A DNA stretch of 33,520 nt, taken from a virus. The translations under genes and the position numbers were made by a program. The notes beneath the pieces are model-generated. The model made no database searches, had not been told where the DNA came from, and saw only the letters and a program-made list of their open reading frames with translations. The DNA is taken from the IMG/VR virus record IMGVR_UViG_3300042332_001711, positions 1 through 33,520 of that record; one strand, written 5' to 3'. Positions 408-30,130 of the stretch are shown one piece after another (position 1 is the first letter of the stretch; the number at the start of each line of letters is the position of its first letter).

Positions 408-1730
408 TTACTGAATCTCGAGAATACCTATTCCGCAATTATAGAAATTTACATGATCTGCTTTATGTTTAAATTCTATGTAGTTATAATTATGTTTAAT
501 TTCTTCCCAAAACTTACCAACACCAACTCCATCTCCCATATTACCTATATCATGAAATATTAAAAACCCGTTCTTATTAACACATTTTAACGCATTTTCA
601 TAATCAGCTTTAACACCTTCGTAAGTATGATCTGCGTCAATAAAAATACAATCATAATTCTTAGTGTTGTTTGCAAAAAAATTATCCGTTGAACTATTAA
701 AAAAACACACTTCCTTTGAAGGAAACATTTTTTTAAGGATGTCTACTTTGGCCTGTATTTTTTCCGGTGTCTGTTGTACGTGAGTGTCTCTATAAGCAAT
801 ATTATCAACGCAGTGCAAAATTTCAGCTGTGCTTTGCAAAAATAAAGAATTAACAAAAAAACTACCACCATTACCTACTCCAAGCTCTAGATATGTTTTT
901 ATATTCCGGTGTTTAATATAAGATAAGAATTTTGAGTATTCTTCAGGTATTTGTTGTAACTGTAAATTACCCGGCGTGTTACAATAGAAATAATGTGGTA
1001 GTTGACTACCTGCCTCGTCTCTTACCCACACTTCAAGCTGCTCAGTGCTCATATTAATTATATCGTCTCTATAAAAATTCATTTGTAAATTTTTGATATG
1101 TTGTATATGCTCACTAGTGTGAGTGCCGTGAAAGGCTAGTGTTTTTTGTATATTATGATCAAGATCCTCACAAACCATTTCGATAGAAAAAGCAGACGCG
1201 AGCTCCAAAGGCGCAAACGTAATACCGTTCTTTTCAAGAAACGCTCTATGACCGACACATATATCTGTATCTTCATGCCCACCACAAGGTAGTTTTTGAA
1301 CTATATCCATTAATCTCTTACTACGAATAGATACGCCGCCGTTACCTACTCTGTGATTTTTATCTGTATAATGTGCTGTTGCTTTCCACGGAGCACCGAT
1401 ATAATCGTATTTTAAAAACTCATCCGTCCAACGATCCGGAGAAATAACAAAACCATCTCTATGAACACTAAAAGCGAATTCAGTTACTATATAATTAGGT
1501 AACTGGTAAATCATAAACTTACAGTAATCTGCAAGATTATTGAGTTTTTCTATCTGTATAAACTTTATGTTACTTTTTATATTGAACGGTTTTTGATGTG
1601 CGAATAAAATAACCTCTTTAAAATTTAAATGTTCACATGTTTTTTCTAATGCTTTAATAGCTAACCTAGGGTCTACGCAATCTGCTACAAATAACGTACA
1701 ATTGTCTATATTTTTTTTGTGTTTTATCAT
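408..1730 (-). CDS. DUF5672-like glycosyltransferase fused to a SAM methyltransferase
   Basis: This 440-residue protein has two parts. Residues about 10-215 look like the DUF5672 family, a glycosyltransferase-related domain usually found in glycan clusters, including YDYIGAPW at about 109-116, the VGNGGVSIRS block at 128-137 and GHEDTDIC at 151-158. Residues about 275-440 form a class I SAM methyltransferase of the Methyltransf_24 kind: LELGVGNGG (281-289) is the SAM-binding glycine motif and IFIDADHTYEG (about 362-372) is the acidic post-motif. A sugar-transfer plus sugar-methylation role is inferred. It is the last gene of the minus-strand GT run, with copy A of the repeated element 48 bp beyond its stop. 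The substrate cannot be read from the sequence. Confidence 0.75.
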   Translation of the reverse strand: MIKHKKNIDNCTLFVADCVDPRLAIKALEKTCEHLNFKEVILFAHQKPFNIKSNIKFIQIEKLNNLADYCKFMIYQLPNYIVTEFAFSVHRDGFVISPDRWTDEFLKYDYIGAPWKATAHYTDKNHRVGNGGVSIRSKRLMDIVQKLPCGGHEDTDICVGHRAFLEKNGITFAPLELASAFSIEMVCEDLDHNIQKTLAFHGTHTSEHIQHIKNLQMNFYRDDIINMSTEQLEVWVRDEAGSQLPHYFYCNTPGNLQLQQIPEEYSKFLSYIKHRNIKTYLELGVGNGGSFFVNSLFLQSTAEILHCVDNIAYRDTHVQQTPEKIQAKVDILKKMFPSKEVCFFNSSTDNFFANNTKNYDCIFIDADHTYEGVKADYENALKCVNKNGFLIFHDIGNMGDGVGVGKFWEEIKHNYNYIEFKHKADHVNFYNCGIGILEIQ

Positions 1731-1742
1731 ATTTTTTAAATA

Positions 1743-2534
1743 TTAGTATTTAATGTGCTCATCTATTGAGATATACTCGAGATCAAGCGCCAAAAATAAA
1801 CTAGAATTAGATACATTAGAAACAGTTTTTATAAGCATGTTACTTTGAGACATCAGATATGTCTCAATCACTACATCTTCACCCATCCTGTACGGATCTC
1901 TCGTACCTACTGAGTGATGTACACCTATATTTGTAGGTGTTTCAGCACGTATACTATTGTACGCGATAACCTTTGAGTTACCATATCTTTTTTTAAAATC
2001 GTTAATAGAATACTCTTCATCTGAGCATATAAGCAGTTTATCATACCTGTCTATATATCTATCTACCGCTTCGTAATATTCTGAAATACTGAGTAGCGGT
2101 GCATCGGTAACATGATCTGTACCTCTCTTATGTACAGCAAGTACAGTTTCATTTTTATTTTTATGCTCTAACCAAAAATTATTTATTTTTTTTACGACAT
2201 GTTGCTTTAGACGGATATACTCTGTACACATTAAATTTGCTATACGTCTAGTCTCAATACTCGGCCTACATTCAATAGACAAGTGTCCGTTTAGCCACAC
2301 GTCCTTTGTATATATATTTTCTCGTTCCGCGAGAGTGATGTTATATGGTTGCTCAAAATAATACTCCCAAACGTTTTCTCCGTACGAGGCATCTTTATAT
2401 CTCATATTGTTATCAAAAAGAACGTATAGCTTATTACCGCTACAGTGTGTAACGTACAAGTTACTTATAACTTGTACGAAATACGACATTAAACCAGCGT
2501 GCCTGGCTCCTGGTATAGTTGCTAAAATATGCAT
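1743..2534 (-). CDS. fucosyltransferase-like protein (GT23/GT11/NodZ-like)
   Basis: This is a 263-residue protein. The recognisable motif is HKRGTD at residues 135-140, which matches the H-x-R-x-T-D nucleotide-sugar-binding motif of the alpha-1,6/alpha-1,2/protein O-fucosyltransferase superfamily, where the arginine contacts GDP-fucose. The N-terminus (ILATIPGARHAGL) fits the first Rossmann strand and loop. Late blocks such as MGEDVVIETYLMSQS and SNVSNSSLFLAL resemble the C-terminal region of that superfamily, where a serine/threonine after the ETYLMSQ-type helix is common. It directly follows the GT10 gene with no gap. The acceptor is unknown. Fold-level assignment is fairly good, exact family less so. 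Confidence 0.65.
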   Translation of the reverse strand: MHILATIPGARHAGLMSYFVQVISNLYVTHCSGNKLYVLFDNNMRYKDASYGENVWEYYFEQPYNITLAERENIYTKDVWLNGHLSIECRPSIETRRIANLMCTEYIRLKQHVVKKINNFWLEHKNKNETVLAVHKRGTDHVTDAPLLSISEYYEAVDRYIDRYDKLLICSDEEYSINDFKKRYGNSKVIAYNSIRAETPTNIGVHHSVGTRDPYRMGEDVVIETYLMSQSNMLIKTVSNVSNSSLFLALDLEYISIDEHIKY

Positions 2535-3350
2535 TTAATTAAATAAAAAATTATATGTTTTATAAAGCCAATCTTCAGTTGTTTTAAACTCTTTTGCTTT
2601 TAAAAAATTTTCTTCTATTGCAGAGCTCTTACTGGCGTATATAAAATCACTGTTATGGTTTAACTCTAACAAAATATTTTGTAATTCTTGTATAGTGTTA
2701 AAAAATATTATGCCGTCTTTATTAAAATAATCCACAACACTTTCAGTGCCCCAGTATATAGGGATTGTTTTTGTGTTAAAGCAATCTACAATCTTCTCCG
2801 TCCAATAACCTCTCTGTACACTATTTTCAATTACAATTGAAAATTTATAAGTAGAAAGTGCTTCTTCCTTATAAGCAACTGGTCTATAACCTCTTCCGTA
2901 AACATCTATATCTCGTATTGCGCTAATAACGCTATGTCTCAAATGATGACCGTATGTATGATTCTTACTAGACGCAATAATAGAAATATTTTTGTTTTTT
3001 TTCTGCTCAACATAATTAGTAATCCATGTTCCTCCCCATACCCCGTAGAGGTAATTTTCCCCTCTATCTGTTATATCTAAATCATGTGTTATTACAAAAT
3101 CGAACTCTTTATTGTTGTGTATAATCCAGTCGTATATTTCTGGTATTAATGATTTAGGCTCTAAAATCCATGCAATCTTTCTCTGCGCACCGCGTAAACG
3201 TTTCGCATCAACAAGACAAAAGTCTGTTATAAAACACGATTTACTCACTCTAACATTACCTCTTTCCCATCTTACTAAATCGCTAATTTGCATATGACAC
3301 GATGAAGAGTCGCCTATGAAGTTTTTATCCTGTAAATTTATTGTGACCAT
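2535..3350 (-). CDS. GT10 alpha-1,3-fucosyltransferase-like protein
   Basis: This 271-residue protein shows the GT10 signature in its C-terminal half: FSIVIENS (170-177), YWTEKIVDCF (182-191) and IPIYWG (196-201), followed by the acidic VVDYFN region. These are the GDP-fucose-binding motifs of Helicobacter-type alpha-1,3/1,4-fucosyltransferases. It is shorter than many bacterial GT10 enzymes (about 350 or more residues) but has the complete donor domain. The start overlaps the 3' end of the preceding GT gene by 13 bp, so the two are translationally linked. A TATAAATA lies one base before the start codon on the coding strand. Transfer of fucose to a virion or host-surface glycan is inferred. 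Confidence 0.85.
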   Translation of the reverse strand: MVTINLQDKNFIGDSSSCHMQISDLVRWERGNVRVSKSCFITDFCLVDAKRLRGAQRKIAWILEPKSLIPEIYDWIIHNNKEFDFVITHDLDITDRGENYLYGVWGGTWITNYVEQKKNKNISIIASSKNHTYGHHLRHSVISAIRDIDVYGRGYRPVAYKEEALSTYKFSIVIENSVQRGYWTEKIVDCFNTKTIPIYWGTESVVDYFNKDGIIFFNTIQELQNILLELNHNSDFIYASKSSAIEENFLKAKEFKTTEDWLYKTYNFLFN

Positions 3351-4141
3351 GTATTTATATACTCCTCAATTTGTCCTTTCGACATATTGTTAATTTTTTT
3401 ATTTTCATTATGATTTTGTTGAAAAAAACTATGATCTTCTTTTTTACTAAATCTCTCTTTATCATGAGGTAAGTGGAAAAAATAAGGACTCTCTGTGTTG
3501 ATAGCGAAAATTTTAATGTTTAATTTTTTTGCTCTATCTATTATCTCAGTATCCTCAAACCCCCAGCCTTTTATATATGGGTTAAAACCACCTAAGCGTT
3601 TAAAGGTTTGCTTAGTGCCAAACAAACATCCACCCATAGCTTTAAGATTAGGTATGCTATAATTCTCCCCTATATAAAACGGGTAAATCGTTTGCTTATC
3701 GACAAAACTATCTAAAAATTCGTACAAATTGTCTACATTAACAGGTATTTGATCTTTTACCGTGTACGTAAAATACATACATGTGCCATTATAACCTATA
3801 CAAATACATTCCGGGACACAGCTAATAGTCTCTATAGCTTTTAACAGATTGGAACAACTAATAACACCATCAACATCTAAAAAACATATATTATCATGAG
3901 TTGCATGAGATAGACCGATATTATAACTCTTACTTTTATTGTATATAGCGTCATTATAAACAAACACGTACTTAACATCTTTTTCTTCTTGTAACATTTT
4001 AAAATGCTGCTCCGCATCATCTTCTACAAAAACAAACTCTGTCCCCGAGGGAGATATACGCCTATAATAATCAAATGTCATTAACAAATTTTTAACACGT
4101 TCCTCCGTGTCTTTTCGTATATGTATAATATATGTTAACAT
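3338..4141 (-). CDS. GT-A glycosyltransferase, galactosyltransferase-like (tandem paralogue 1)
   Basis: This 267-residue protein shows a DxD metal/nucleotide-sugar motif at 89-91 (FLDVDG) and the Glyco_transf_7C-type motif GWGFEDTEI at 192-200, which belongs to the acceptor/catalytic region of GT7/GT27-like beta-galactosyl or GalNAc transferases. It has the same length as its upstream neighbour and similar sequence throughout (both begin with an HIRKDT-xERV block and share IGYNGTC and LGGFNP/IGGFNP blocks), so the two arose by tandem duplication. It ends inside the start of the GT10 gene and begins 4 bp after the paralogue stops. Donor and acceptor sugars are unknown. Confidence 0.8.
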   Translation of the reverse strand: MLTYIIHIRKDTEERVKNLLMTFDYYRRISPSGTEFVFVEDDAEQHFKMLQEEKDVKYVFVYNDAIYNKSKSYNIGLSHATHDNICFLDVDGVISCSNLLKAIETISCVPECICIGYNGTCMYFTYTVKDQIPVNVDNLYEFLDSFVDKQTIYPFYIGENYSIPNLKAMGGCLFGTKQTFKRLGGFNPYIKGWGFEDTEIIDRAKKLNIKIFAINTESPYFFHLPHDKERFSKKEDHSFFQQNHNENKKINNMSKGQIEEYINTWSQ

Positions 4142-4145
4142 AATT

Positions 4146-4949
4146 TTAACTCCACGTATTAATATAATCTTTTAAATCATTTTTTGTCATATTAAGTATT
4201 TTTAAATATTCATTTTCATTATTCTGATACGCCGAGTGCATATGTTCTTTATTTTTGGTTGTTACACTTACATGGGGCAAATGAAACAAATACGGTTTAT
4301 CTGTATTAATATAATAAATTGCGACACCTAGTTTATTAGCTCTTCTTATAATCTCGTTATCTTCGTACCCCCAGCCGTTGAAATTAGGATTAAATCCACC
4401 GATGCTTTGAAACACTTCTTTATTCCCGAACAAAGAACCTCCAACTGCCTTAAGATTAGCAACATGATAATGTTCATTAGTGTAAAGGGGTGTTATTTTA
4501 TTCTTATCAATAAAACTGTCTAACCAATCGTAAAGCTCAATATTTAAATTATTCCGAGTTATCTGTCTTTTTACGCTATAATCAAAGTAAAAACATGTAC
4601 CATTATAACCTATACATATCCCACCCGTTTCATTTACAGTTTTTAAAGACTGTTTTAAATTTACATCACTAATAATACAGTCGATATCTATAAAACAAAT
4701 CATACTTTCTTTACATTTTGAAAGACCGTAATTATAACCCGCACATTTGTTGTATGAGCCAGTATTATGTATATAATAATATTCCACATCTCTTTCAATT
4801 GAAAGATATTCAAAATTCTTTACGCTATCATCTTCAACAACTACAAACTTGCAACCAGGAGCAATTTTACGATAATATGATAAAACCAAAGAAAGATTAG
4901 CAACTCTTTCATCCGTGTCTTTGCGTATATGAGCAATAAACGTAACCAT
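4146..4949 (-). CDS. GT-A glycosyltransferase, galactosyltransferase-like (tandem paralogue 2)
   Basis: This 267-residue protein has DxD at 88-90 (FIDIDC) and GWGYEDNEI at 192-200, the same two key motifs at nearly the same residues as the next gene. The start codon lies only 15 bp from the edge of structured element copy B, so any transcript reading through the element would enter this gene almost at once. The divergence of the pair is large enough (different acceptor-side residues around 140-165) that they may use different acceptors in one glycan. A role in virion or host-surface glycosylation is inferred from the cluster. Confidence 0.8.
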   Translation of the reverse strand: MVTFIAHIRKDTDERVANLSLVLSYYRKIAPGCKFVVVEDDSVKNFEYLSIERDVEYYYIHNTGSYNKCAGYNYGLSKCKESMICFIDIDCIISDVNLKQSLKTVNETGGICIGYNGTCFYFDYSVKRQITRNNLNIELYDWLDSFIDKNKITPLYTNEHYHVANLKAVGGSLFGNKEVFQSIGGFNPNFNGWGYEDNEIIRRANKLGVAIYYINTDKPYLFHLPHVSVTTKNKEHMHSAYQNNENEYLKILNMTKNDLKDYINTWS

Positions 4950-4964
4950 ATATTAGTTAAACAT

Positions 4965-5260
4965 GTGAACTACCAGTAGGCTAAAGACCTACTGGCTTCA
5001 GGGTATATATTCTACCTGTCTTTTTAGACATCTCAACGCTTGTGCCCTTTAAAGATTTCTCCTTAACAGGTCTTATTTTTGCTCCATGCCTGTAATCGAC
5101 AGTTCCTGCCGATGAACATCCATAGTATGTTCTTTTTGCCTTTGATATACTTGGTATCAGCATCCAAAAAGAAGACAATGTCTTTTTTGCTACGCCACTG
5201 AAAGGTCTTTTTATATAATTTAAAATATCTATTTCCATTGAAGGGGTTATTTTAAATTAT
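4965..5260 (-). ncRNA. candidate structured RNA in copy B (omega-RNA/HEARO-like)
   Basis: Helices are 4973-4980/4988-4995, CAG-G-GTA/TACCTG at 4999-5018 (one bulged G), GAACAT/ATGTTC at 5114-5119/5127-5132 (loop CCATAGT) and a long bulged stem at about 5165-5189 (CAAAAA-GA-AGAC/GTCTTTTTTG). Against copy A these stems change on both sides while keeping pairing, which is the usual sign of a selected RNA. One GATAAATA on the minus strand (5274 to 5267) is kept at the same place as in copy A and would initiate near 5261. Strand assignment is inferred. Confidence 0.5.
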
Positions 5261-5338
5261 CTTTTTTATTTATCTTTTGCAAGGCTGAGTTTCATCCGAG
5301 TGACTAAAGATCACTCAGCTTTCACTCAGTCCTGAAAT
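4965..5338 (-). mobile_element. IS200/IS605-like structured element, copy B
   Basis: This is the only copy with both ends and both flanks in the window (374 bp). The left end GTGAACTACC has hairpin 4973-4980/4988-4995 (CCAGTAGG/CCTACTGG, loop CTAAAGA). The right end has a CGAGTGA/TCACTCA hairpin with the same loop, then TCCTGAAAT, after which it no longer matches copy A. There is no clear target-site duplication at the two ends, as expected for IS200/IS605 single-strand transposition. It separates two glycosyltransferase genes. An 85-residue reading frame crosses it but is broken in copy A. Confidence 0.7.
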
Positions 5339-5413
5339 GTAAAAATTTAAATTCTTCTATTATTTGACTTCCCCGTCATTCTCTCTTAATATTTTAGTTG
5401 CTGTGTTATTCAT

Positions 5414-6160
5414 TTATTTAGTGAATTTGTTTGTTATATTAATATTCCCATACATTAATAACACCTCTTTAAAATGTTTATATTTTTGCTCATAAGCGTG
5501 AACATAGCTTATATTATTATGTGTACCTCCAAAATCAATACCCGTATCTTCTTTTGACGGATCAAATTTATTACTATACCAACTCATCCCTTCTAGATGA
5601 AGATAATATTCTCCCTGTAAATCTACATTACCGATTTTTAATTCTGCATTTTTAACGTCTTCAAAAAATGTTGATCCGATATCATAAATTTTATCTGTCT
5701 TAAAACTTTCTTTCATTTTTGTCTCGTTAAAAAAACGAATATCGTTTAACTTAATTTGCTCAACATCAATAAAACAATGCCACGGATTTACACGTTTATA
5801 TATCCTCTTACCACCTCTATCGCCTTCGATTTTACCCATTAGCGCAAGATTCAAGTCCTTAAACTGTTTAAAGATGTTGTTATGATCTTTTAAAAAAATA
5901 ACATCTGTATCAACGAGAAGAGCGTATTTAGTCTCACAGAGCTCTAAAGCTTTATTAACACCGTCTCCGTGCGTACCACCTTTTATACGCGTAAACGGTA
6001 TTTTATTTTCAGTTAAGAGTAAGCTAGTCTTCTCGTCAGTAGAGTTATCGATTAGGACGATTCTCTGTGCTCTCTTATGAGTAGACATAAAAGAGCGTAA
6101 CATAGTCAATGTGATATCAGGCGTATTATACGAGCACGTAATAAGTGTTAAGTCGTGCAT
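5414..6160 (-). CDS. GT2-family glycosyltransferase
   Basis: This 248-residue protein starts with the GT2 nucleotide-binding strand and turn (LTLITCSYNTPD), continues with VLIDNSTDE (35-43), and has the metal-binding DTD at 84-86 (LLVDTDVIFL). This is the usual order for inverting GT2 enzymes. The C-terminal half is less typical and may bind the acceptor. It lies 2 bp after the next GT2 gene and is followed by structured element copy B. Its substrate is not evident. Confidence 0.8.
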   Translation of the reverse strand: MHDLTLITCSYNTPDITLTMLRSFMSTHKRAQRIVLIDNSTDEKTSLLLTENKIPFTRIKGGTHGDGVNKALELCETKYALLVDTDVIFLKDHNNIFKQFKDLNLALMGKIEGDRGGKRIYKRVNPWHCFIDVEQIKLNDIRFFNETKMKESFKTDKIYDIGSTFFEDVKNAELKIGNVDLQGEYYLHLEGMSWYSNKFDPSKEDTGIDFGGTHNNISYVHAYEQKYKHFKEVLLMYGNINITNKFTK

Positions 6161-6161
6161 G

Positions 6162-6995
6162 CTATTTTTTAAGTTTTTTAAGATAGCTAATTACATCTTG
6201 TTGAGAGGTGTGACGTGCTTCAGCTGGGTAGTGACCGTTCTTTTGCTTGTACCGTTCAGCGTTCTCTCGAACGTTATTAAGCCATGATTCTGTATTCTTT
6301 GATGTTGAACTATTCTTAATAGCGCTTTGCTGTGGCTCGATAAATTTATGACTATCGTGTATATCTGCAAACCACCAAAAAGGTGGGTGATACCCAGCTT
6401 TAATGATACTATATGTATGATCTACATGATCCCATGCATTAAAAAATTGCTCATCTATAACCCCGACGAGATCGAGAATTTTTTTAGTGTAAAAGGAAAA
6501 CGTACCAGTGACGTGTTCGTATAAAGCAAGTTTACAGCTTTTATAATCTACAATTAATTTTGGGCTCGGTTCGGTCTTCTCCTCGAGTAAGTGTCTATTA
6601 TGCAGATCAAAATTTTGAATTGACTGTTTTCTATTGAACGGTGAGCCCGGACCGTAGTTAAAATGCTGTATACCGCTTATATTACATAAATCTATATACG
6701 TTTGAAAAACTAACGGGTCTATTATTTTCATATCATCCTCAATAAGGAAGATATAATCACAATTGTTGCTCAGTAAATATTTTAAAGCTTTATTTTTTGA
6801 TTTTGCGACACCAAGATTTCTTTCATTCTCTATCAACTCACCTTTGAGCAAATCAAAATCAGTCAGAGACTTACCGTCATTTATAATTACAAGTTCATCG
6901 ATGTCACTACAAACAGACAAAGACTCAATTAAGTTTTTAAGGTATTCAAGCCTGTCACACGTGATAACTCCGACTCCTATTTTTTCACTACTCAT
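6162..6995 (-). CDS. GT2-family glycosyltransferase
   Basis: The start is placed at the ATG that overlaps the stop of the upstream gene (ATGAGTAG). An earlier in-frame start at 7028 would add a positively charged stretch not typical of the family. From this start the protein is 277 residues with IGVGVITCDRLEYL (GT2 strand 1), VIINDGKS, and EDD at 86-88 (FLIEDDMKI) as the metal-binding motif. Later blocks (FNAWDHVDHTYSIIKAGY) resemble the acceptor-side ED/H-containing loop of GT2 enzymes. Overlapping and near-zero spacing to both neighbours suggests one operon. Confidence 0.8.
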   Translation of the reverse strand: MSSEKIGVGVITCDRLEYLKNLIESLSVCSDIDELVIINDGKSLTDFDLLKGELIENERNLGVAKSKNKALKYLLSNNCDYIFLIEDDMKIIDPLVFQTYIDLCNISGIQHFNYGPGSPFNRKQSIQNFDLHNRHLLEEKTEPSPKLIVDYKSCKLALYEHVTGTFSFYTKKILDLVGVIDEQFFNAWDHVDHTYSIIKAGYHPPFWWFADIHDSHKFIEPQQSAIKNSSTSKNTESWLNNVRENAERYKQKNGHYPAEARHTSQQDVISYLKKLKK

Positions 6996-7605
6996 CTTTA
7001 TTAGCTTTCTTATGAGCTTTAAGTGCATCTTTTAAATTTTCAAAACTATCTTGTGCTTTGATATGTGGTACTGTCTGGTATTTATACTGAAACCAACCTG
7101 CTGATATTTCATCGTAAACATGCTTAGTAACCCCTGCTACATTATCAACAGCCGCCCCAAACACCCATGGTGCTTTATCAACACTGAGATCAGGGTACAA
7201 AGAAGTTTTTGAGAGCCTATACGCATAATCCCCTACACTGCAATTATCCGTAAATCTGACATCAAAATAACCAATCTCAGCAATCGCTTTTCTTGAAATA
7301 CACTCTAAAATTATTTTTTGCTCGTTTATTGTACTTACATCTATTTTCGCTGTACCGTAATCTATACTTGTAACTGGCTGTAGTTTACCAGTCAAATACT
7401 GTATACCTGTAGCTTTTAAAGTGCTAATACAGCTTTGTGCGTACTCTTCTATCTCTTGTTCAGATAAAATACGTAATTCTGTTTTATTATTGTAGAGTAC
7501 AGCGTAATCAAAATCAGTATCATACATAAAGCTTCTCAAAAAAGAATTTTTTTGAGAAGTCTGTTTTTTATTGTTTTCGTATTGAAATATACTAAAATTT
7601 TTCAT
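6988..7605 (-). CDS. hypothetical protein with a glycosyltransferase-like C-terminal block
   Basis: This 205-residue protein is not recognised overall. Residues about 103-135 (ISRKAIAEIGYFDVRF, then VGDYAYRLSK) look like the block of GT2 enzymes where an R-K-x-[AV]-x-x-[IV]-G-x-F-D motif precedes the catalytic acidic residues. No DxD motif or N-terminal nucleotide-binding strand is clear, so it could be a shortened or diverged glycosyltransferase or a different phage protein. Its start overlaps the gp47 stop by 4 bp (ATGA) and its end overlaps the next GT2 gene, placing it at the junction of the replication and glycan blocks. Confidence 0.6.
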   Translation of the reverse strand: MKNFSIFQYENNKKQTSQKNSFLRSFMYDTDFDYAVLYNNKTELRILSEQEIEEYAQSCISTLKATGIQYLTGKLQPVTSIDYGTAKIDVSTINEQKIILECISRKAIAEIGYFDVRFTDNCSVGDYAYRLSKTSLYPDLSVDKAPWVFGAAVDNVAGVTKHVYDEISAGWFQYKYQTVPHIKAQDSFENLKDALKAHKKANKDE

Positions 7606-25402: not shown

Positions 25403-26422
25403 TTACGATTCGCACGACTTGCAACTCATTATTGATCTTGCAAGCTCTTGTGCTGGGTTAGCACTACGTTGATAGTATAGACTTTTAATACCTTGCTCCC
25501 AGGCAAAAATCATAAGCTCGTTAACTTCTTTTGGCTTAGTACTAGGTGGTATCATAAGATTGAGAGACTGGCCTTGATCAATATACTTCTGTCGAGCTGC
25601 AGCTTGAATAATAATTTCTTTTTGAGAAATTTCACCAAATGTTTTAAACACATCTTTTTCTTCTTGGGTAAGAAAATCTAAATGTTGTACTGAACCACCA
25701 TGAATTAGTATAGACTTCCATACATCATCATTATCTTTGTCTTTTTCTTTTAAAAGATCTTTAAGAAAAGGGTTTCTATATGTAAACTTACCCTTTGCAA
25801 GATCTTTAACATAGTAATTACTATTGAGAGGTTCGATACTAGGAGATACTTGACCTAGTATAAAGCTTGAAGATGTGGTAGGTGCAACTGCAAGTGTAGT
25901 CGTGTTTCTACGAGTATAATTTGCTGTTTCAGGCATACCATCAAAGATTGGAGCCCGACCGTACATATTTGCTAATTCTTGGGAAGCACTATCCGCTCTT
26001 TCTCTAATGTTTTTCCAGATTAAATTATTAAGCATTTTAGCTTCCATAGACTCAAAGCTTATCATTTTTAATTGAAGAAGAGAATGCCAACCGAGAACAC
26101 CAATTCCAAGAGCGCGTTGATTAATAGCAAATTTACGAGATGCTTCCATGAATCTTACTCCTTCTGTTTTCTCAATAAACTCAGACATGACTGCATCTAA
26201 AAAATAAACCATCATTTCTACAGCGTCTGTGTTCTTCCATTCTTCCCATCTCTCGAGATTCATAGACGATAGATCACATACAAATGACTCATCTTTTGAA
26301 TTACTAAGAAAAATCTCCGAACAATTATGAACAAGTATTTTATTGGCAAAAAAATTCGCCACTCTCTTTACAGTAATGTCATATACTGGCTCTGCGTGTC
26401 TATAACGTTTAATTTTTAACAT
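25403..26422 (-). CDS. nrdA: split intein C-part plus C-terminal half of NrdA
   Basis: Residues 1-33 are the intein C-part (VYDITVKRVANFFANKILVHN), with the F and G blocks ending in the splice Asn. C34 is the first residue of the C-extein and corresponds to the catalytic radical cysteine (E. coli NrdA C439), followed by SE, where E441 is expected. C49 (FVCDLSS) fits C462, LYYQRS carries the Tyr pair of the radical chain (Y730/Y731), and the C-terminal CKSC fits C754/C759. After trans-splicing this would restore class I NrdA. Confidence 0.92.
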   Translation of the reverse strand: MLKIKRYRHAEPVYDITVKRVANFFANKILVHNCSEIFLSNSKDESFVCDLSSMNLERWEEWKNTDAVEMMVYFLDAVMSEFIEKTEGVRFMEASRKFAINQRALGIGVLGWHSLLQLKMISFESMEAKMLNNLIWKNIRERADSASQELANMYGRAPIFDGMPETANYTRRNTTTLAVAPTTSSSFILGQVSPSIEPLNSNYYVKDLAKGKFTYRNPFLKDLLKEKDKDNDDVWKSILIHGGSVQHLDFLTQEEKDVFKTFGEISQKEIIIQAAARQKYIDQGQSLNLMIPPSTKPKEVNELMIFAWEQGIKSLYYQRSANPAQELARSIMSCKSCES

Positions 26423-26427
26423 AAAAT

Positions 26428-27288
26428 TTATTTTTTAATAGGAATACAAATGTTGGAAAATCCGGTTAAATGATACTTATCATCCACTATTTGGCTTAGC
26501 ATATTATAGTATCCTTTTTTACCTAATCCACCGAATCTAAATTTTGCTACACCCTTTAACCATTTAAAATTACGAATTTCCGATAATCTTATCATCTCCG
26601 GCCATGATAAGATTCTGCCAAATTCCTTATATGTCTCCACGCCTTTTTCTAGAAAATAGTTATCCTCTAGACCACAATATCTATTATTATTTTTACCAGC
26701 TCCTATTTGTTTTCGTGTGATTCTTTCCTCCTCAGAAATTTTTCTACCTTTCGTATGATGTACCCATGTGCCAGACAGGACGTTAGGATGATTAACTGGC
26801 ACAGAACCTATAATTTTATTCGTATTTCTGTCTTTTACAACAATTGTTCCTTTTCTTGCTTTAGAAATTCTCGTTCTACCCTCTTCTGTTTGCCATCCTT
26901 CCGTCTTACGCAAGAATACTGAATGATGCTTTAACCAAGCGTACCCCATACGAATTTTTTTATTTAAAATGTTACTAAATTTACCTTTAAATATATTATT
27001 ACTGTTGTATCCGTTTAATGTAAGCCTTACAGCTAACATATCTTCTCGCTTTCTATAAATTTTATATCTCAACATATGCAAGAAAATATGCTCTTCAGGT
27101 AAAACTTCTACAAGATTGTTAAGTTCATCACTACCCCCAAGGGACCTAGGAATAATGTGATGAACTTCTTGATAAATTGTTTTATTCATTAGTCTTGAAT
27201 CATTTGAATTTCTTTTTTTTAATCTCGCTCTAGGATTTGTTGTCTTAAAATAAGCTATAAATTGATCATGTATTTTTTTATAATTCAT
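26428..27288 (-). CDS. HNH homing endonuclease between the intein halves
   Basis: The start is set at the ATG at 27288, just after a hairpin. A TTG 12 bases earlier is possible. The 286-residue protein has an HNH domain at about 38-75: EVHHIIPRSLGG (H43, H44), NNLVEVLPEEH (N57/N58, H67) and H71. KGRKISEEE and CGLEDNYF blocks are typical of DNA-binding NUMOD-like regions of phage HNH enzymes. Its position exactly between the N- and C-intein genes fits the fractured-gene arrangement, in which a free-standing endonuclease takes the place of the intein's own homing domain. Confidence 0.88.
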   Translation of the reverse strand: MNYKKIHDQFIAYFKTTNPRARLKKRNSNDSRLMNKTIYQEVHHIIPRSLGGSDELNNLVEVLPEEHIFLHMLRYKIYRKREDMLAVRLTLNGYNSNNIFKGKFSNILNKKIRMGYAWLKHHSVFLRKTEGWQTEEGRTRISKARKGTIVVKDRNTNKIIGSVPVNHPNVLSGTWVHHTKGRKISEEERITRKQIGAGKNNNRYCGLEDNYFLEKGVETYKEFGRILSWPEMIRLSEIRNFKWLKGVAKFRFGGLGKKGYYNMLSQIVDDKYHLTGFSNICIPIKK

Positions 27289-27289
27289 A

Positions 27290-27318
27290 TTTCTGTGCAA
27301 TGCTTTTATGCACAGAAA
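27290..27318 (-). promoter_or_regulatory. hairpin directly before the HNH gene start
   Basis: On the coding strand TTTCTGTGCA/TGCACAGAAA forms a perfect 10-bp stem with a 9-base loop, ending 2 bases before the ATG at 27288. It follows AATAAATA at 27326 to 27319. In T4, homing endonuclease genes such as I-TevI have hairpins that hide the ribosome site in read-through transcripts and allow translation only from a late promoter. Confidence 0.7.
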
Positions 27319-27326
27319 TATTTATT

Positions 27327-28406
27327 CTATTCGTCGTTATTTTTTAGGGTTTCGAGTACATCATCTTCTCTCAAATCTTGAGCTTGTACGTATCCTCTGT
27401 TTTTAGTGTAAATTTGATGCTCAGGTGTGCATTTAATAACGTTACCGTCTTCGTCTTCAATTTCTATTAAATCGATCGATTCTCCTGTTTGAGCAAACGC
27501 TTCAATAGTCGAATATACTTCTTGATTTGTTTCTATATCAAATGATCTCACTTTAACATTAATATACCTCTTCATATAATAACCAAGATCTACAATTGGT
27601 ATTTCGAGACATTCATCGCCGTTAATAAGAATTTCTATCCTCGTATCACCAGTTACACATAAATTGCTATTATTAATCGTTAAACCTTTATCTTTATAAA
27701 TTTGAGGTGCTTGGTTATTTGCGTTATCAGTAAAGAAAATATATGGGTAACCTGATTCAAATCGTTTTTTTATTACCTGACCCCAAATTTTACGTGCTTC
27801 TTTATCACCGTCTAGCATTTTTTTCATCCAAGAGTCAGATACACATACCCCTATAGACATATCTTGAATCTCATTACCTTCAGAGCGAATCTTTAAGAAC
27901 TCTTCAATGTCTGGATGATCAATAGGGAGATAGGCAGCGAAAGAACCTCTACGAACATTGCCTTGAGATACTACGTTCATAAGTTTGTTATAAAGCTCCA
28001 TAAAATGTACAGAACCTGTAGACTCTCCGCCAGAAGAAATAGGTGTACCCCTACCCCTTATATCACCAAAATACGCAGACGTACCGCCGCCGCCAGCAGT
28101 CATAGTACCGACTTCAGCAACTTTTTCAAATATACATTCCAAAGTGTCGCAAATATAAGAACCAAAACACGAAATAGGCAACCCGCGCTCTCTACCAAAA
28201 TTAGACCACACCGGGCTAGATAAAGAATAAAAACCTCTAGACATATACCCTTCAAACTTATCAGCAAACCCTACTATATTGAGGTATTTTTCTGCTGCTT
28301 TTGCAATGTCTTTAATTCTTTGTTCCGCTGTCTCTCCTTCTAACAAGTAACCTCGTTCAAGAAATTTACGGGAATCTTTGTTTAGCCAGTATATATCATT
28401 ATTCAT
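27327..28406 (-). CDS. nrdA: N-terminal half of NrdA plus split intein N-part
   Basis: Residues 1-249 are class I NrdA without an ATP cone: SCFGSY (C80, E. coli C225) and the TMTAGGGGTS and VRRGSFAAYLP blocks. The NrdA sequence stops at NNSNL (245-249) and the intein starts at C250 (CVTGDTRI). The intein N-part is 110 residues, with a B block CTPEH and an A block at C250, and ends at 359. The intein junction codon is at 27657-27659. Splicing with the C-part gene would rejoin SNL to CSE at the radical cysteine. Confidence 0.93.
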   Translation of the reverse strand: MNNDIYWLNKDSRKFLERGYLLEGETAEQRIKDIAKAAEKYLNIVGFADKFEGYMSRGFYSLSSPVWSNFGRERGLPISCFGSYICDTLECIFEKVAEVGTMTAGGGGTSAYFGDIRGRGTPISSGGESTGSVHFMELYNKLMNVVSQGNVRRGSFAAYLPIDHPDIEEFLKIRSEGNEIQDMSIGVCVSDSWMKKMLDGDKEARKIWGQVIKKRFESGYPYIFFTDNANNQAPQIYKDKGLTINNSNLCVTGDTRIEILINGDECLEIPIVDLGYYMKRYINVKVRSFDIETNQEVYSTIEAFAQTGESIDLIEIEDEDGNVIKCTPEHQIYTKNRGYVQAQDLREDDVLETLKNNDE

Positions 28407-28411
28407 TATGT

Positions 28412-30130
28412 TTATTTTATATTATTTATCGAGGTTAGCAAGCGCTTCTTTTTTTTCTCACCTAACCACTCAAACTTTATAGAACCACAGTCGTAGATCC
28501 TACTATAACCTAACTCTCTCATGATCGTTTTTTCAGTTTTTAATTTATTGTGTCCGTGTGCTACAAGAACATCCTTCCTAAAAACGAACCTGTTGTATCG
28601 CCTATTACCACGAACATAAAAATAATTCGGCTTTGTATGGTATAGTTCAGTAAAACCTAATTTACGGTACATAATACCGGTTCCGTACCTCCTATCGCAA
28701 TAGCTTATAATCTTAACAGGGGCATGCTCGTTGATAAAATATTTAAACAACCTCGACGCACCACCTACAATATTTGTATTTAATACACCACACATTCTCA
28801 ATAATTCATACTCTCCTTCACTGGCATCGCTACCTAAGTTTATCCTTTGCTTACCAAAAGTAGCAAGCATAACTAAACAGTCTTCATAATAGAGCCCATA
28901 TCTATATTTTGAAATACAATTTCCCTGTATATGGTTATGCATGAGAAATGTCTTTGCGTCGATTGAATTAACACTTCTAATAGTACAGTTTCTTGCATAA
29001 ATTTTATTTTCAGTTTTTTTAAACGCATTAAGAATAATACTCTCGCAAATTGAACGTTTCTCCAACCATTCATCTTCAAAAATATGAATTAACCTATAAC
29101 CCAAGCTATTCATTGCCTCTGTTTTCTTTAAGTGATAATCTTTTTCCTTATAAGACTCACTATGCCAATACAGCCCGTTAAATTCGATACCCGTTTTTAT
29201 TTCGTGATTGATTATATCAATCTCTTTTACATCTTTAAAACCTCTAAAAGCGCTTTCATATATTATATTTTTTTTATCTAGTAAATCTCTAATTTGTTTC
29301 TCGTATGAACTGACCGCAGGTGTACATACAGGGCAAAATCCACCCCCTAACACATGTATGAGTGGCTTTGTAGTGTAATCTCCATGCTCTGGGCACGTAA
29401 CAGTTATAGGATGATGTGCATGCACGTATACACTATTATTATATGAATATCTCTTGTTGTGAGCCTTATTTGACCGTTGCACGAATTCTTCTGTTGTATA
29501 AGTTGCAGATTCTCGTACACAGCGCGAACAGCCAAAATTTTCTCTATTTTCTATATACGATATTTTGGTTATATATTCTCCATGTAATGCACATCTCACG
29601 GTAACAAGATCTAGTTTTGTTTTAAATTGTTTTAAATTAGAAAAATCGTAACGTTCAAAATTTTTCTTTTTAGATAACTGTTCTAGAAAGACATCTATAC
29701 TCTGTCTGTTGGCGTTAGTTGTTTTTAGAGCTCCGCATTTCTGGCACCCGCATGCAGTATTTTTGTGTCTGTTGGCTTGAATAAGAAAATCTCCATGAAC
29801 AGGGCATGTAACAGTTACAATTTGAAAGCTACCAGTAAATATTGTTTTACTGTAATCATAAAAATTATCATGTACTATACGACACGCTTCAATATATTCT
29901 TCACTCGTCAATCTATGACTAGCTCCGTTTAATTTTCGAGAGCAGCTCGGGCAACCTGTACCCGTTAAATGATTGGCAGGTAGTATTGTGAAATCTCCAT
30001 GCTCTCTACACGTTAAGCCTACTTTTGTTAGTTGATTGATGTAGTTTGTATTTGTATAAAGAAACTTATCTCCGAATTTTGTTTTTGATCGATCAATAAA
30101 TTCTTTTGTTGTGAGACCTTTTCTGGACAT
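28412..30130 (-). CDS. EDxHD/Vsr-like homing endonuclease with four zinc repeats
   Basis: This 572-residue protein has four copies of a C-x2-HG[DE][FY]...C-x2-C unit (residues about 41-63, 109-132, 180-204, 246-269), then a Vsr-like endonuclease core (about 281-360) with EIDI, GIEFNGLYWHSE and RLIHIFEDEW, and a C-terminal domain (about 380-545) that resembles a Mom/GNAT-like acetyltransferase fold (FLMHNHIQGNC; ISYCDRRYGTGIMYRKLGF). EDxHD/Vsr-type endonucleases were first noted with split inteins in fractured genes. It sits between nrdB and nrdA-N, 6 bp before nrdA-N, and has a TATAAATA 5 bases before its start. Confidence 0.88.
   Translation of the reverse strand: MSRKGLTTKEFIDRSKTKFGDKFLYTNTNYINQLTKVGLTCREHGDFTILPANHLTGTGCPSCSRKLNGASHRLTSEEYIEACRIVHDNFYDYSKTIFTGSFQIVTVTCPVHGDFLIQANRHKNTACGCQKCGALKTTNANRQSIDVFLEQLSKKKNFERYDFSNLKQFKTKLDLVTVRCALHGEYITKISYIENRENFGCSRCVRESATYTTEEFVQRSNKAHNKRYSYNNSVYVHAHHPITVTCPEHGDYTTKPLIHVLGGGFCPVCTPAVSSYEKQIRDLLDKKNIIYESAFRGFKDVKEIDIINHEIKTGIEFNGLYWHSESYKEKDYHLKKTEAMNSLGYRLIHIFEDEWLEKRSICESIILNAFKKTENKIYARNCTIRSVNSIDAKTFLMHNHIQGNCISKYRYGLYYEDCLVMLATFGKQRINLGSDASEGEYELLRMCGVLNTNIVGGASRLFKYFINEHAPVKIISYCDRRYGTGIMYRKLGFTELYHTKPNYFYVRGNRRYNRFVFRKDVLVAHGHNKLKTEKTIMRELGYSRIYDCGSIKFEWLGEKKKKRLLTSINNIK

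What the first reader, a model, noticed from the sequence alone, without database searches (positions are those of the whole stretch)
25403..28406. Fractured nrdA with a split intein placed at the radical cysteine
NrdA is encoded as two genes. The first ends NNSNL and then has a 110-residue intein N-part starting at C250. The second begins with a 33-residue intein C-part ending HN and then C-S-E. Trans-splicing would rejoin SNL-CSE at the E. coli C439 position, so the enzyme is inactive until the intein works. Fractured genes with split inteins were described from marine metagenomes for NrdA, NrdJ, gp41 and IMPDH. This locus has the same plan with an HNH gene between the halves.
Basis: partly seen in the sequence, partly recalled or inferred. 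Interest (0 to 1): 0.8.

Follow-up and report, generated by a model that had tools for sequence, protein, structure and literature searches.

The report
Split-intein nrdA carrying a homing endonuclease
In this phage a DNA-building enzyme is encoded in two pieces that a self-splicing protein tag should weld together at the enzyme's catalytic cysteine; a selfish endonuclease gene sits between the pieces, and relatives show the package moving between unrelated phages and the gene staying broken after the endonuclease decays.

Summary
On the minus strand nrdA is two ORFs: NrdA-N ends NNSNL|CVTGDT plus a 110-aa intein N-part; NrdA-C begins with a 33-aa intein C-part ending HN|CSEI; an HNH gene lies between. 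Both intein halves pass NCBIfam cut-offs and all key splicing residues are present. The split-intein 'fractured gene' reading is supported; that kind is known, so this is a new member. Added here: (1) 37 of 38 related IMG/VR nrdA loci have an exactly empty site. (2) The IntN-HNH-IntC cassette sits at the same site in nrdA genes with only about 20-30% extein identity, including cultured Yersinia phage TG1; trees and synonymous divergence show horizontal movement. (3) The HNH start codon lies in a hairpin beside a late-promoter-like box, the layout described for Aeh1 mobE. (4) Seven relatives keep HNH fossils between split halves, so the split state outlives the endonuclease. Splicing and DNA cleavage are inferred, not shown. 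'Inactive until spliced' is plausible but untested: Aeh1's nrdA, broken nearby without an intein, works as two chains.

The parts
27660..28406 (-). nrdA-N extein (249 aa, ends NNSNL)
   Evidence: Pfam RNR barrel and N-terminal domain; TIGR02510 positions 13-261
27330..27659 (-). intein N-part, 110 aa, C1 = NrdA-N residue 250; stop codon 27329-27327
   Evidence: TIGR01445 above cut-off; C1, T78xxH81 invariant in 39 relatives
27319..27326 (-). AATAAATA, one base off the T4 late-promoter box TATAAATA, overlapping the hairpin 5' arm
   Evidence: function inferred
27287..27321 (-). perfect 13-bp hairpin that includes the first two bases of the HNH start codon
   Evidence: 0 of 1000 dinucleotide shuffles reach it; analogous stems of different sequence in relatives
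26428..27288 (-). HNH homing endonuclease gene, 286 aa from ATG
   Evidence: Pfam HNH above cut-off, PHROG 655 homing endonuclease, H43/H44, N58, H67 invariant in 16 homologues
26324..26422 (-). intein C-part, 33 aa, ends FFANKILVHN
   Evidence: TIGR01443 above cut-off; D15, H32, N33 invariant in 39
25406..26323 (-). nrdA-C extein (306 aa), starts C-S-E-I; +1 Cys is the C439-equivalent radical cysteine
   Evidence: TIGR02510 positions 259-560
28412..30130 (-). Vsr-like (EDxHD-type) endonuclease gene between nrdB and nrdA-N, with exact TATAAATA at 30143-30136; neighbouring element, not part of the intein cassette
   Evidence: PHROG 559/3339; best solved relative 3r3p 'Mobile intron protein', E 0.0014; independent of the intein in L004 and L008
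30185..31204 (-). nrdB (context); true start probably an internal ATG
   Evidence: PF00268

Best explanation
A functional split intein with its own mobility gene. NrdA-N-IntN and IntC-NrdA-C are translated separately, acidic IntN and basic IntC associate, and a class 1 splicing reaction (C1 thioester, transfer to the +1 Cys, Asn cyclisation) joins SNL to CSE, restoring the radical-cysteine loop of a class I RNR alpha chain (inferred from sequence). The HNH gene between the halves is a homing endonuclease that cuts intein-free nrdA in mixed infections, so that repair copies IntN-HNH-IntC as one unit (cutting inferred; past movement of the cassette shown by relatives). A hairpin over the HNH start codon keeps it untranslated on long nrdA transcripts until a late transcript starts inside the hairpin (inferred from T4 I-TevI and Aeh1 mobE). 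When the endonuclease decays the gene stays split and lives on by trans-splicing (shown by fossils in relatives).
For: Both intein ends above curated cut-offs and all key residues invariant in 39 relatives. Cis homologue L048 folds as HINT with pLDDT 94.6, best match NrdJ-1 split intein 8ubs, Z 22.2; window intein's best solved relative by sequence is NrdJ-1, E 1e-15. Net charge IntN -15, IntC +5; dN/dS 0.03-0.18 for IntN and 0.05-0.22 for HNH in unsaturated pairs of relatives. Exact empty site in 37 of 38 nrdA loci. Same cassette at the same site in TG1 with 22-27% extein identity. Intein clade of the window includes L048 and L057, whose exteins are about 6 changes per column away. Intein synonymous divergence below extein in 133 of 136 pairs, e.g. 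0.13 against 0.64. Hairpin 0 of 1000 shuffles; mobE precedent.
Against: No splicing, cleavage or expression data. Window pairs are saturated at synonymous sites, so recent movement is shown for relatives, not for the window itself. IntC of many second-register relatives is not basic, so charge pairing is not general. Hairpin does not stand out in L096, L052, L081. The window's late box is one base off consensus.
Confidence: 0.83

Rival explanations
1. Genes in pieces without splicing: the two chains assemble non-covalently, as in Aeromonas phage Aeh1, and the intein parts are dead passengers.
For: Aeh1 nrdA split by the HNH gene mobE makes an active two-chain enzyme (PMC2988022), and MobE is a distant relative of this HNH (35% over 89 aa).
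Against: Aeh1's break lies downstream of NLCIEIALPT and has no intein sequence. Here intein residues are invariant and under purifying selection, also in relatives that lost the endonuclease. The break lies exactly at the radical cysteine.
Confidence: 0.07
2. The HNH gene is not the mobility agent: the intein spreads by ordinary recombination or with help from the neighbouring Vsr-like endonuclease, and HNH is a later passenger.
For: Vsr-like genes lie next to nrdA/nrdB in the window, TG1 and L008; L058 carries an HNH from another intein lineage.
Against: The Vsr-like gene occurs without the intein (L008) and the cassette without the Vsr-like gene (L004). HNH is under purifying selection with invariant catalytic residues, all 20 nrdA-intein HNHs form one clade, and window and L093 pair in both trees.
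Confidence: 0.12
3. Decaying pseudogene or assembly artefact.
For: Such loci have been annotated as pseudogenes, e.g. Campylobacter phage CPt10.
Against: The same arrangement recurs in many independent contigs and in sequenced cultured phages; all frames are open and RNR parts complete.
Confidence: 0.02

Closest known systems
Fractured genes with split inteins from marine metagenomes (Dassa 2009; NrdA-2, NrdJ-1, gp41-1, IMPDH-1)
   Same: Conserved enzyme gene broken by a split intein with a free-standing endonuclease gene between; nrdA among the hosts (details of the paper from memory, not held).
   Different: Here in a 33-kb viral contig with empty-site relatives. Sequence identity to the published NrdA inteins could not be measured.
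Yersinia phage vB_YenM_TG1 nrdA (KP202158)
   Same: SNL|C IntN, HNH (38% identical), IntC HN|CAEI, hairpin before HNH, plus a Vsr-like gene beside nrdB.
   Different: T4-like NrdA only 22-27% identical to the window's; annotated as two RNR genes and an HNH, no intein noted.
Aeromonas phage Aeh1 nrdA-A / mobE / nrdA-B
   Same: nrdA broken by an HNH gene of the same broad family with a start-codon hairpin.
   Different: Break further downstream, no intein, chains assemble without splicing.
NrdJ-1 split intein (8ubs)
   Same: Closest solved intein by sequence and fold (on cis homologue); break at the same place within a few residues.
   Different: From class II RNR; by my reading of L042, a probable NrdJ-1-type case, inserted after rather than before the radical Cys.
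Cis LAGLIDADG inteins in phage NrdA (Salicola SCTP-2, Staphylococcus V1SA22)
   Same: Interrupt NrdA at the same SNL/C position.
   Different: One chain, endonuclease domain inside the intein.

Membership tests
Fractured gene with split intein | One enzyme encoded as two ORFs broken at a conserved site | tested here: met
   TIGR02510 halves abut at 261/259; intact homologues contiguous at the site
Fractured gene with split intein | IntN at the end of the first ORF and IntC at the start of the second | tested here: met
   TIGR01445 and TIGR01443 above cut-offs
Fractured gene with split intein | Free-standing endonuclease gene between the halves | tested here: met
   HNH ORF 27288-26428, PF01844 above cut-off, PHROG homing endonuclease
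Fractured gene with split intein | Trans-splicing activity | not testable with these tools
   Needs expression; residues and selection are consistent
Class 1 split intein | C1, TxxH, penultimate His, terminal Asn, +1 Cys/Ser/Thr | tested here: met
   C1, T78PEH81, H32(C), N33(C), +1 Cys
Class 1 split intein | HINT fold | tested here: inconclusive
   Split halves could not be joined for prediction; cis homologue L048 folds as HINT, Z 22.2 to 8ubs
HNH homing endonuclease | HNH motif | tested here: met
   H43/H44, N58, H67 invariant in 16 homologues
HNH homing endonuclease | Mobility with homologous empty alleles | tested here: met
   Empty sites; cassette transfer across distant nrdA
HNH homing endonuclease | Cleaves intein-free nrdA | not testable with these tools
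   Needs a biochemical assay
Aeh1-type gene in pieces | Break without intein sequence | tested here: not met
   Intein parts present here, absent in Aeh1
Group I/II intron (alternative cause of the break) | Intron RNA structure in the break | tested here: inconclusive
   No Rfam match at gathering score, which does not exclude an undescribed intron; the intein halves account for the break
Vsr-like (EDxHD) endonuclease, ORF 28412-30130 | Relation to the solved EDxHD domain | tested here: met
   3r3p, E 0.0014 over residues 275-356; that 3r3p is the EDxHD enzyme I-Bth0305I is from memory

The most novel reading that the evidence does not exclude
One gene site shows the whole life cycle of split-intein birth: an HNH gene with its own start-codon hairpin and late promoter enters a contiguous intein and splits it; the three-part cassette homes between unrelated nrdA genes; the HNH then decays by deletion, leaving its 3' end as a fossil, while the intein stays split. 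Natural split inteins would then be scars of endonuclease invasion held by a one-way ratchet.
Probability: 0.45. Interest if true: 0.65.

Novelty: new member of a known kind. Interest (0 to 1): 0.48.

Why it matters
How contiguous inteins become split is an open question. This site offers empty, cis, split-with-endonuclease and split-with-fossil alleles side by side, and a cultured T4-like phage (TG1) in which splicing, endonuclease timing and homing could be measured. It also suggests that 'pseudogene' nrdA calls in Campylobacter phages are wrong, and it supplies many natural split inteins for protein-ligation work.

Tried and rejected
Intron as cause of the break: no Rfam match at gathering score. 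Co-conversion tract around the site: exteins about 75% identical at DNA level, saturated, no signal. HNH traces in L050 (closest split relative by extein, no HNH): alignment to the HNH 5' end not better than chance, p about 0.06, so not claimed. HNH profile against PDB sequences: nothing at E 1. HNH fold comparison: model only partly confident (pLDDT 69), best rows Z 3.3, HNH-domain chains Z 2-2.9 over residues 9-81, uninformative. My first intein/extein comparison chose pairs by low intein divergence and was biased; I repeated it on all pairs of one group. Dassa 2009 and Friedrich 2007 are not held.

Full report
OBSERVATION. The window is a 33,520-bp IMG/VR viral fragment. On the minus strand, downstream of nrdB (31204-30185), lie nrdA-N (28406-27327), an HNH gene (ATG 27288 to 26428) and nrdA-C (26422-25403). 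NrdA-N ends INNSNL and continues as CVTGDTRI..., a 110-aa intein N-part. NrdA-C begins with 33 aa ending FFANKILVHN and continues CSEIFL. NCBIfam recognises both intein ends above their cut-offs and matches the two RNR parts to abutting positions of TIGR02510 (261/259). The cysteine at +1 sits in the SNLC[x]E motif, the E. coli C439 position by established RNR knowledge. 39 homologous inteins at this or the equivalent RNR site share invariant C1, G4, T78, H81 in IntN and D15, H32, N33 in IntC.

EMPTY SITES. Of 38 nrdA loci found in IMG/VR with the window's NrdA-N, 37 have SNL and C[S/T/N]EI contiguous, with no base added or missing (21 of them aligned); some are near-duplicates. The nearest, L005, is 89% and 83% identical in the two exteins. 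Only L004 in that set carries the intein. Such patchiness is what a mobile element gives.

RELATIVES WITH THE INTEIN. Searches with the intein N-part and with the HNH protein plus cultured-phage hits gave 39 inteins after removing obvious duplicates, classed by script: 22 split with a full-size insert between the halves (20 of them with this HNH family, including the window), 12 split without an intact endonuclease gene, 5 contiguous (cis). Two insertion registers exist: SNL|C...HN|CxE (window, TG1 and others) and SNLC|C...HN|CEI, one residue later (L059-L087 mostly, and L101).

CULTURED RELATIVE. The best HNH match among about 50,000 phage records is Yersinia phage vB_YenM_TG1 (T4-like). There the order is nrdA-N (IKQSNL|CLSGES...), HNH (38% identical), nrdA-C (...CFFADDILVHN|CAEI), a Vsr-like endonuclease, nrdB. 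Its exteins are 22-27% identical to the window's over the aligned parts. The record annotates the RNR pieces and the HNH but no intein.

MOBILITY. In the intein tree the window groups with L093, L050, L047, L004, L048 and L057 (92/80; inner order unresolved), but the exteins of L048 and L057 lie across a branch of about 6 changes per column. Among 17 loci of the second register, synonymous divergence is lower in the intein than in the extein in 133 of 136 pairs (means 0.67 and 0.86); 17 intein pairs and no extein pair fall below 0.55. The pairs are not independent, but single cases are plain: L078/L080 0.13 (intein) against 0.64 (extein); L083/L085 0.20 (intein) and 0.33 (HNH) against 0.75. 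The 20 HNH proteins from nrdA inteins form one clade (97/94), apart from Aeh1 MobE and other HNH genes, and window and L093 pair in both trees. L058 is an exception: its HNH belongs with the second-register set while its intein does not, so endonuclease genes can also be swapped.

SELECTION AND FOLD. dN/dS is about 0.03-0.18 for IntN and 0.05-0.22 for HNH in pairs where dS is not saturated. For the window pairs dS is saturated, but the non-synonymous difference (0.13-0.30) is far below the synonymous one (0.67-0.80). Window IntN has net charge -15 and IntC +5. A joined split intein could not be submitted for prediction; the cis homologue L048 was, and folds as HINT with pLDDT 94.6, best match NrdJ-1 8ubs, Z 22.2, rmsd 1.4 over 136 residues. 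By sequence the window intein's best solved relative is also NrdJ-1 (E 1e-15).

CONTROL ELEMENT. A perfect 13-bp stem runs into the HNH start codon (27321-27287); none of 1000 dinucleotide shuffles reached it. L004, L093, L094, L098, TG1 and L051 have 12-15 bp stems of different sequence, also 0 of 1000; second-register loci have 9-10 bp stems (p 0.001-0.007); L096, L052 and L081 do not stand out. TG1 carries an exact TATAAATA in the hairpin followed by AAGGAG and ATG; the window has AATAAATA overlapping the 5' arm. In T4 I-TevI and Aeh1 mobE such a hairpin hides the ribosome-binding site on early transcripts and a late promoter bypasses it (PMC2988022). The window has T4-like boxes in front of other genes too, for example exact TATAAATA before the tail-fibre gene and before the Vsr-like gene. 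That the element works this way here is inference.

DECAY. Gaps between split halves in L061, L063, L068, L071, L077, L084 and L086 hold recognisable C-terminal fragments of the HNH gene (blastx 2e-76 to 0.004; for L071 and L077 supported by blastn 2e-4 and 7e-8); L056 is borderline. In L078 the halves overlap by one base while L080, its nearest intein relative, has the full HNH. Loss of the endonuclease thus leaves the intein split. On the intein tree the endonuclease state of split inteins changes at least 10 times, cis/split at least 4 times. Whether cis L048 is ancestral or re-fused is not resolved.

COMPARISON WITH AEH1. Aeh1 nrdA-A reads through NLCIEIALPT and ends later with an unrelated tail; nrdA-B resumes at SEISLCTLAAYN; no intein sequence is present. 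So the window is not an Aeh1-type gene in pieces, although the HNH genes and their hairpins are alike. Because Aeh1's two-chain enzyme is active, 'inactive until spliced' is plausible only.

KNOWN OR NEW. PMC3653736 cites seven nrdA and two nrdJ interrupted by inteins in GOS data, and PMC7090010 lists NrdA-2 from the same source. I recall from Dassa 2009 that endonuclease genes lie between the halves, about half of them Vsr-like, some with control elements; the paper is not held. The window is therefore a new member of a known kind. What seems added is the empty-site comparison, the cultured TG1 case, the evidence of cassette transfer and the endonuclease fossils; no paper describing these turned up in seven searches of the held library, which does not prove that none exists.

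Noticed in passing
L136 (Klebsiella jumbo phage KP13-7, OP617745), 1529-7059: nrdA lies in four pieces: a break with a 128-aa HNH-like ORF, a split intein at SNLC|C with a GIY-YIG-like gene between its halves, and a second split intein at MPGE|C...HN|T with a 323-aa HNH-like ORF between its halves. The first break is unexplained; no Rfam match.
   Followed up: partly
L137 and L135 (Campylobacter phages F379 and CPt10), 3187-6817: nrdA is broken by a split intein (TNLC|CLAGDT ... CVHN|CEIS) with two hypothetical ORFs between in F379. CPt10 is annotated as a pseudogene and called degenerate in PMC3653736; trans-splicing is a better reading for F379, and CPt10's N-half is the same.
   Followed up: partly
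L042 4028-7624; L044 5038-7828: Class II RNR (NrdJ) genes with inteins at the homologous radical cysteine: L042 split with a nuclease-like ORF between; L044 cis there plus a second intein, split, with no endonuclease gene.
   Followed up: partly
L037-L040, e.g. L037 4606-7422: nrdA with a large cis intein, apparently of LAGLIDADG type, at PISC|C, the E. coli C225-like cysteine, while the C439 site is empty.
   Followed up: no
L001 (Salicola phage SCTP-2) and L002 (Staphylococcus phage V1SA22): Cis inteins of LAGLIDADG size at the same SNL/C site of NrdA.
   Followed up: no
window 28412-30130; L045 5535-7094; L008 3261-4925: Vsr-like endonuclease genes beside nrdA/nrdB, with and without the split intein; the window copy has an exact late-promoter box just upstream.
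   Followed up: partly
window 20440(-), 30143(-), 3359(-), 11864(+), 13130(+): T4-like late-promoter boxes (TATAAATA/CATAAATA) just upstream of several ORFs, suggesting T4-type late transcription.
   Followed up: no
L058 5360-6295: HNH and intein belong to different lineages, so an endonuclease gene seems to have been swapped into another split intein.
   Followed up: partly
L062, L065-L067 at the intein: Contiguous (cis) intein whose frame ends about 62 residues after the splice site; the downstream break was not explained.
   Followed up: no
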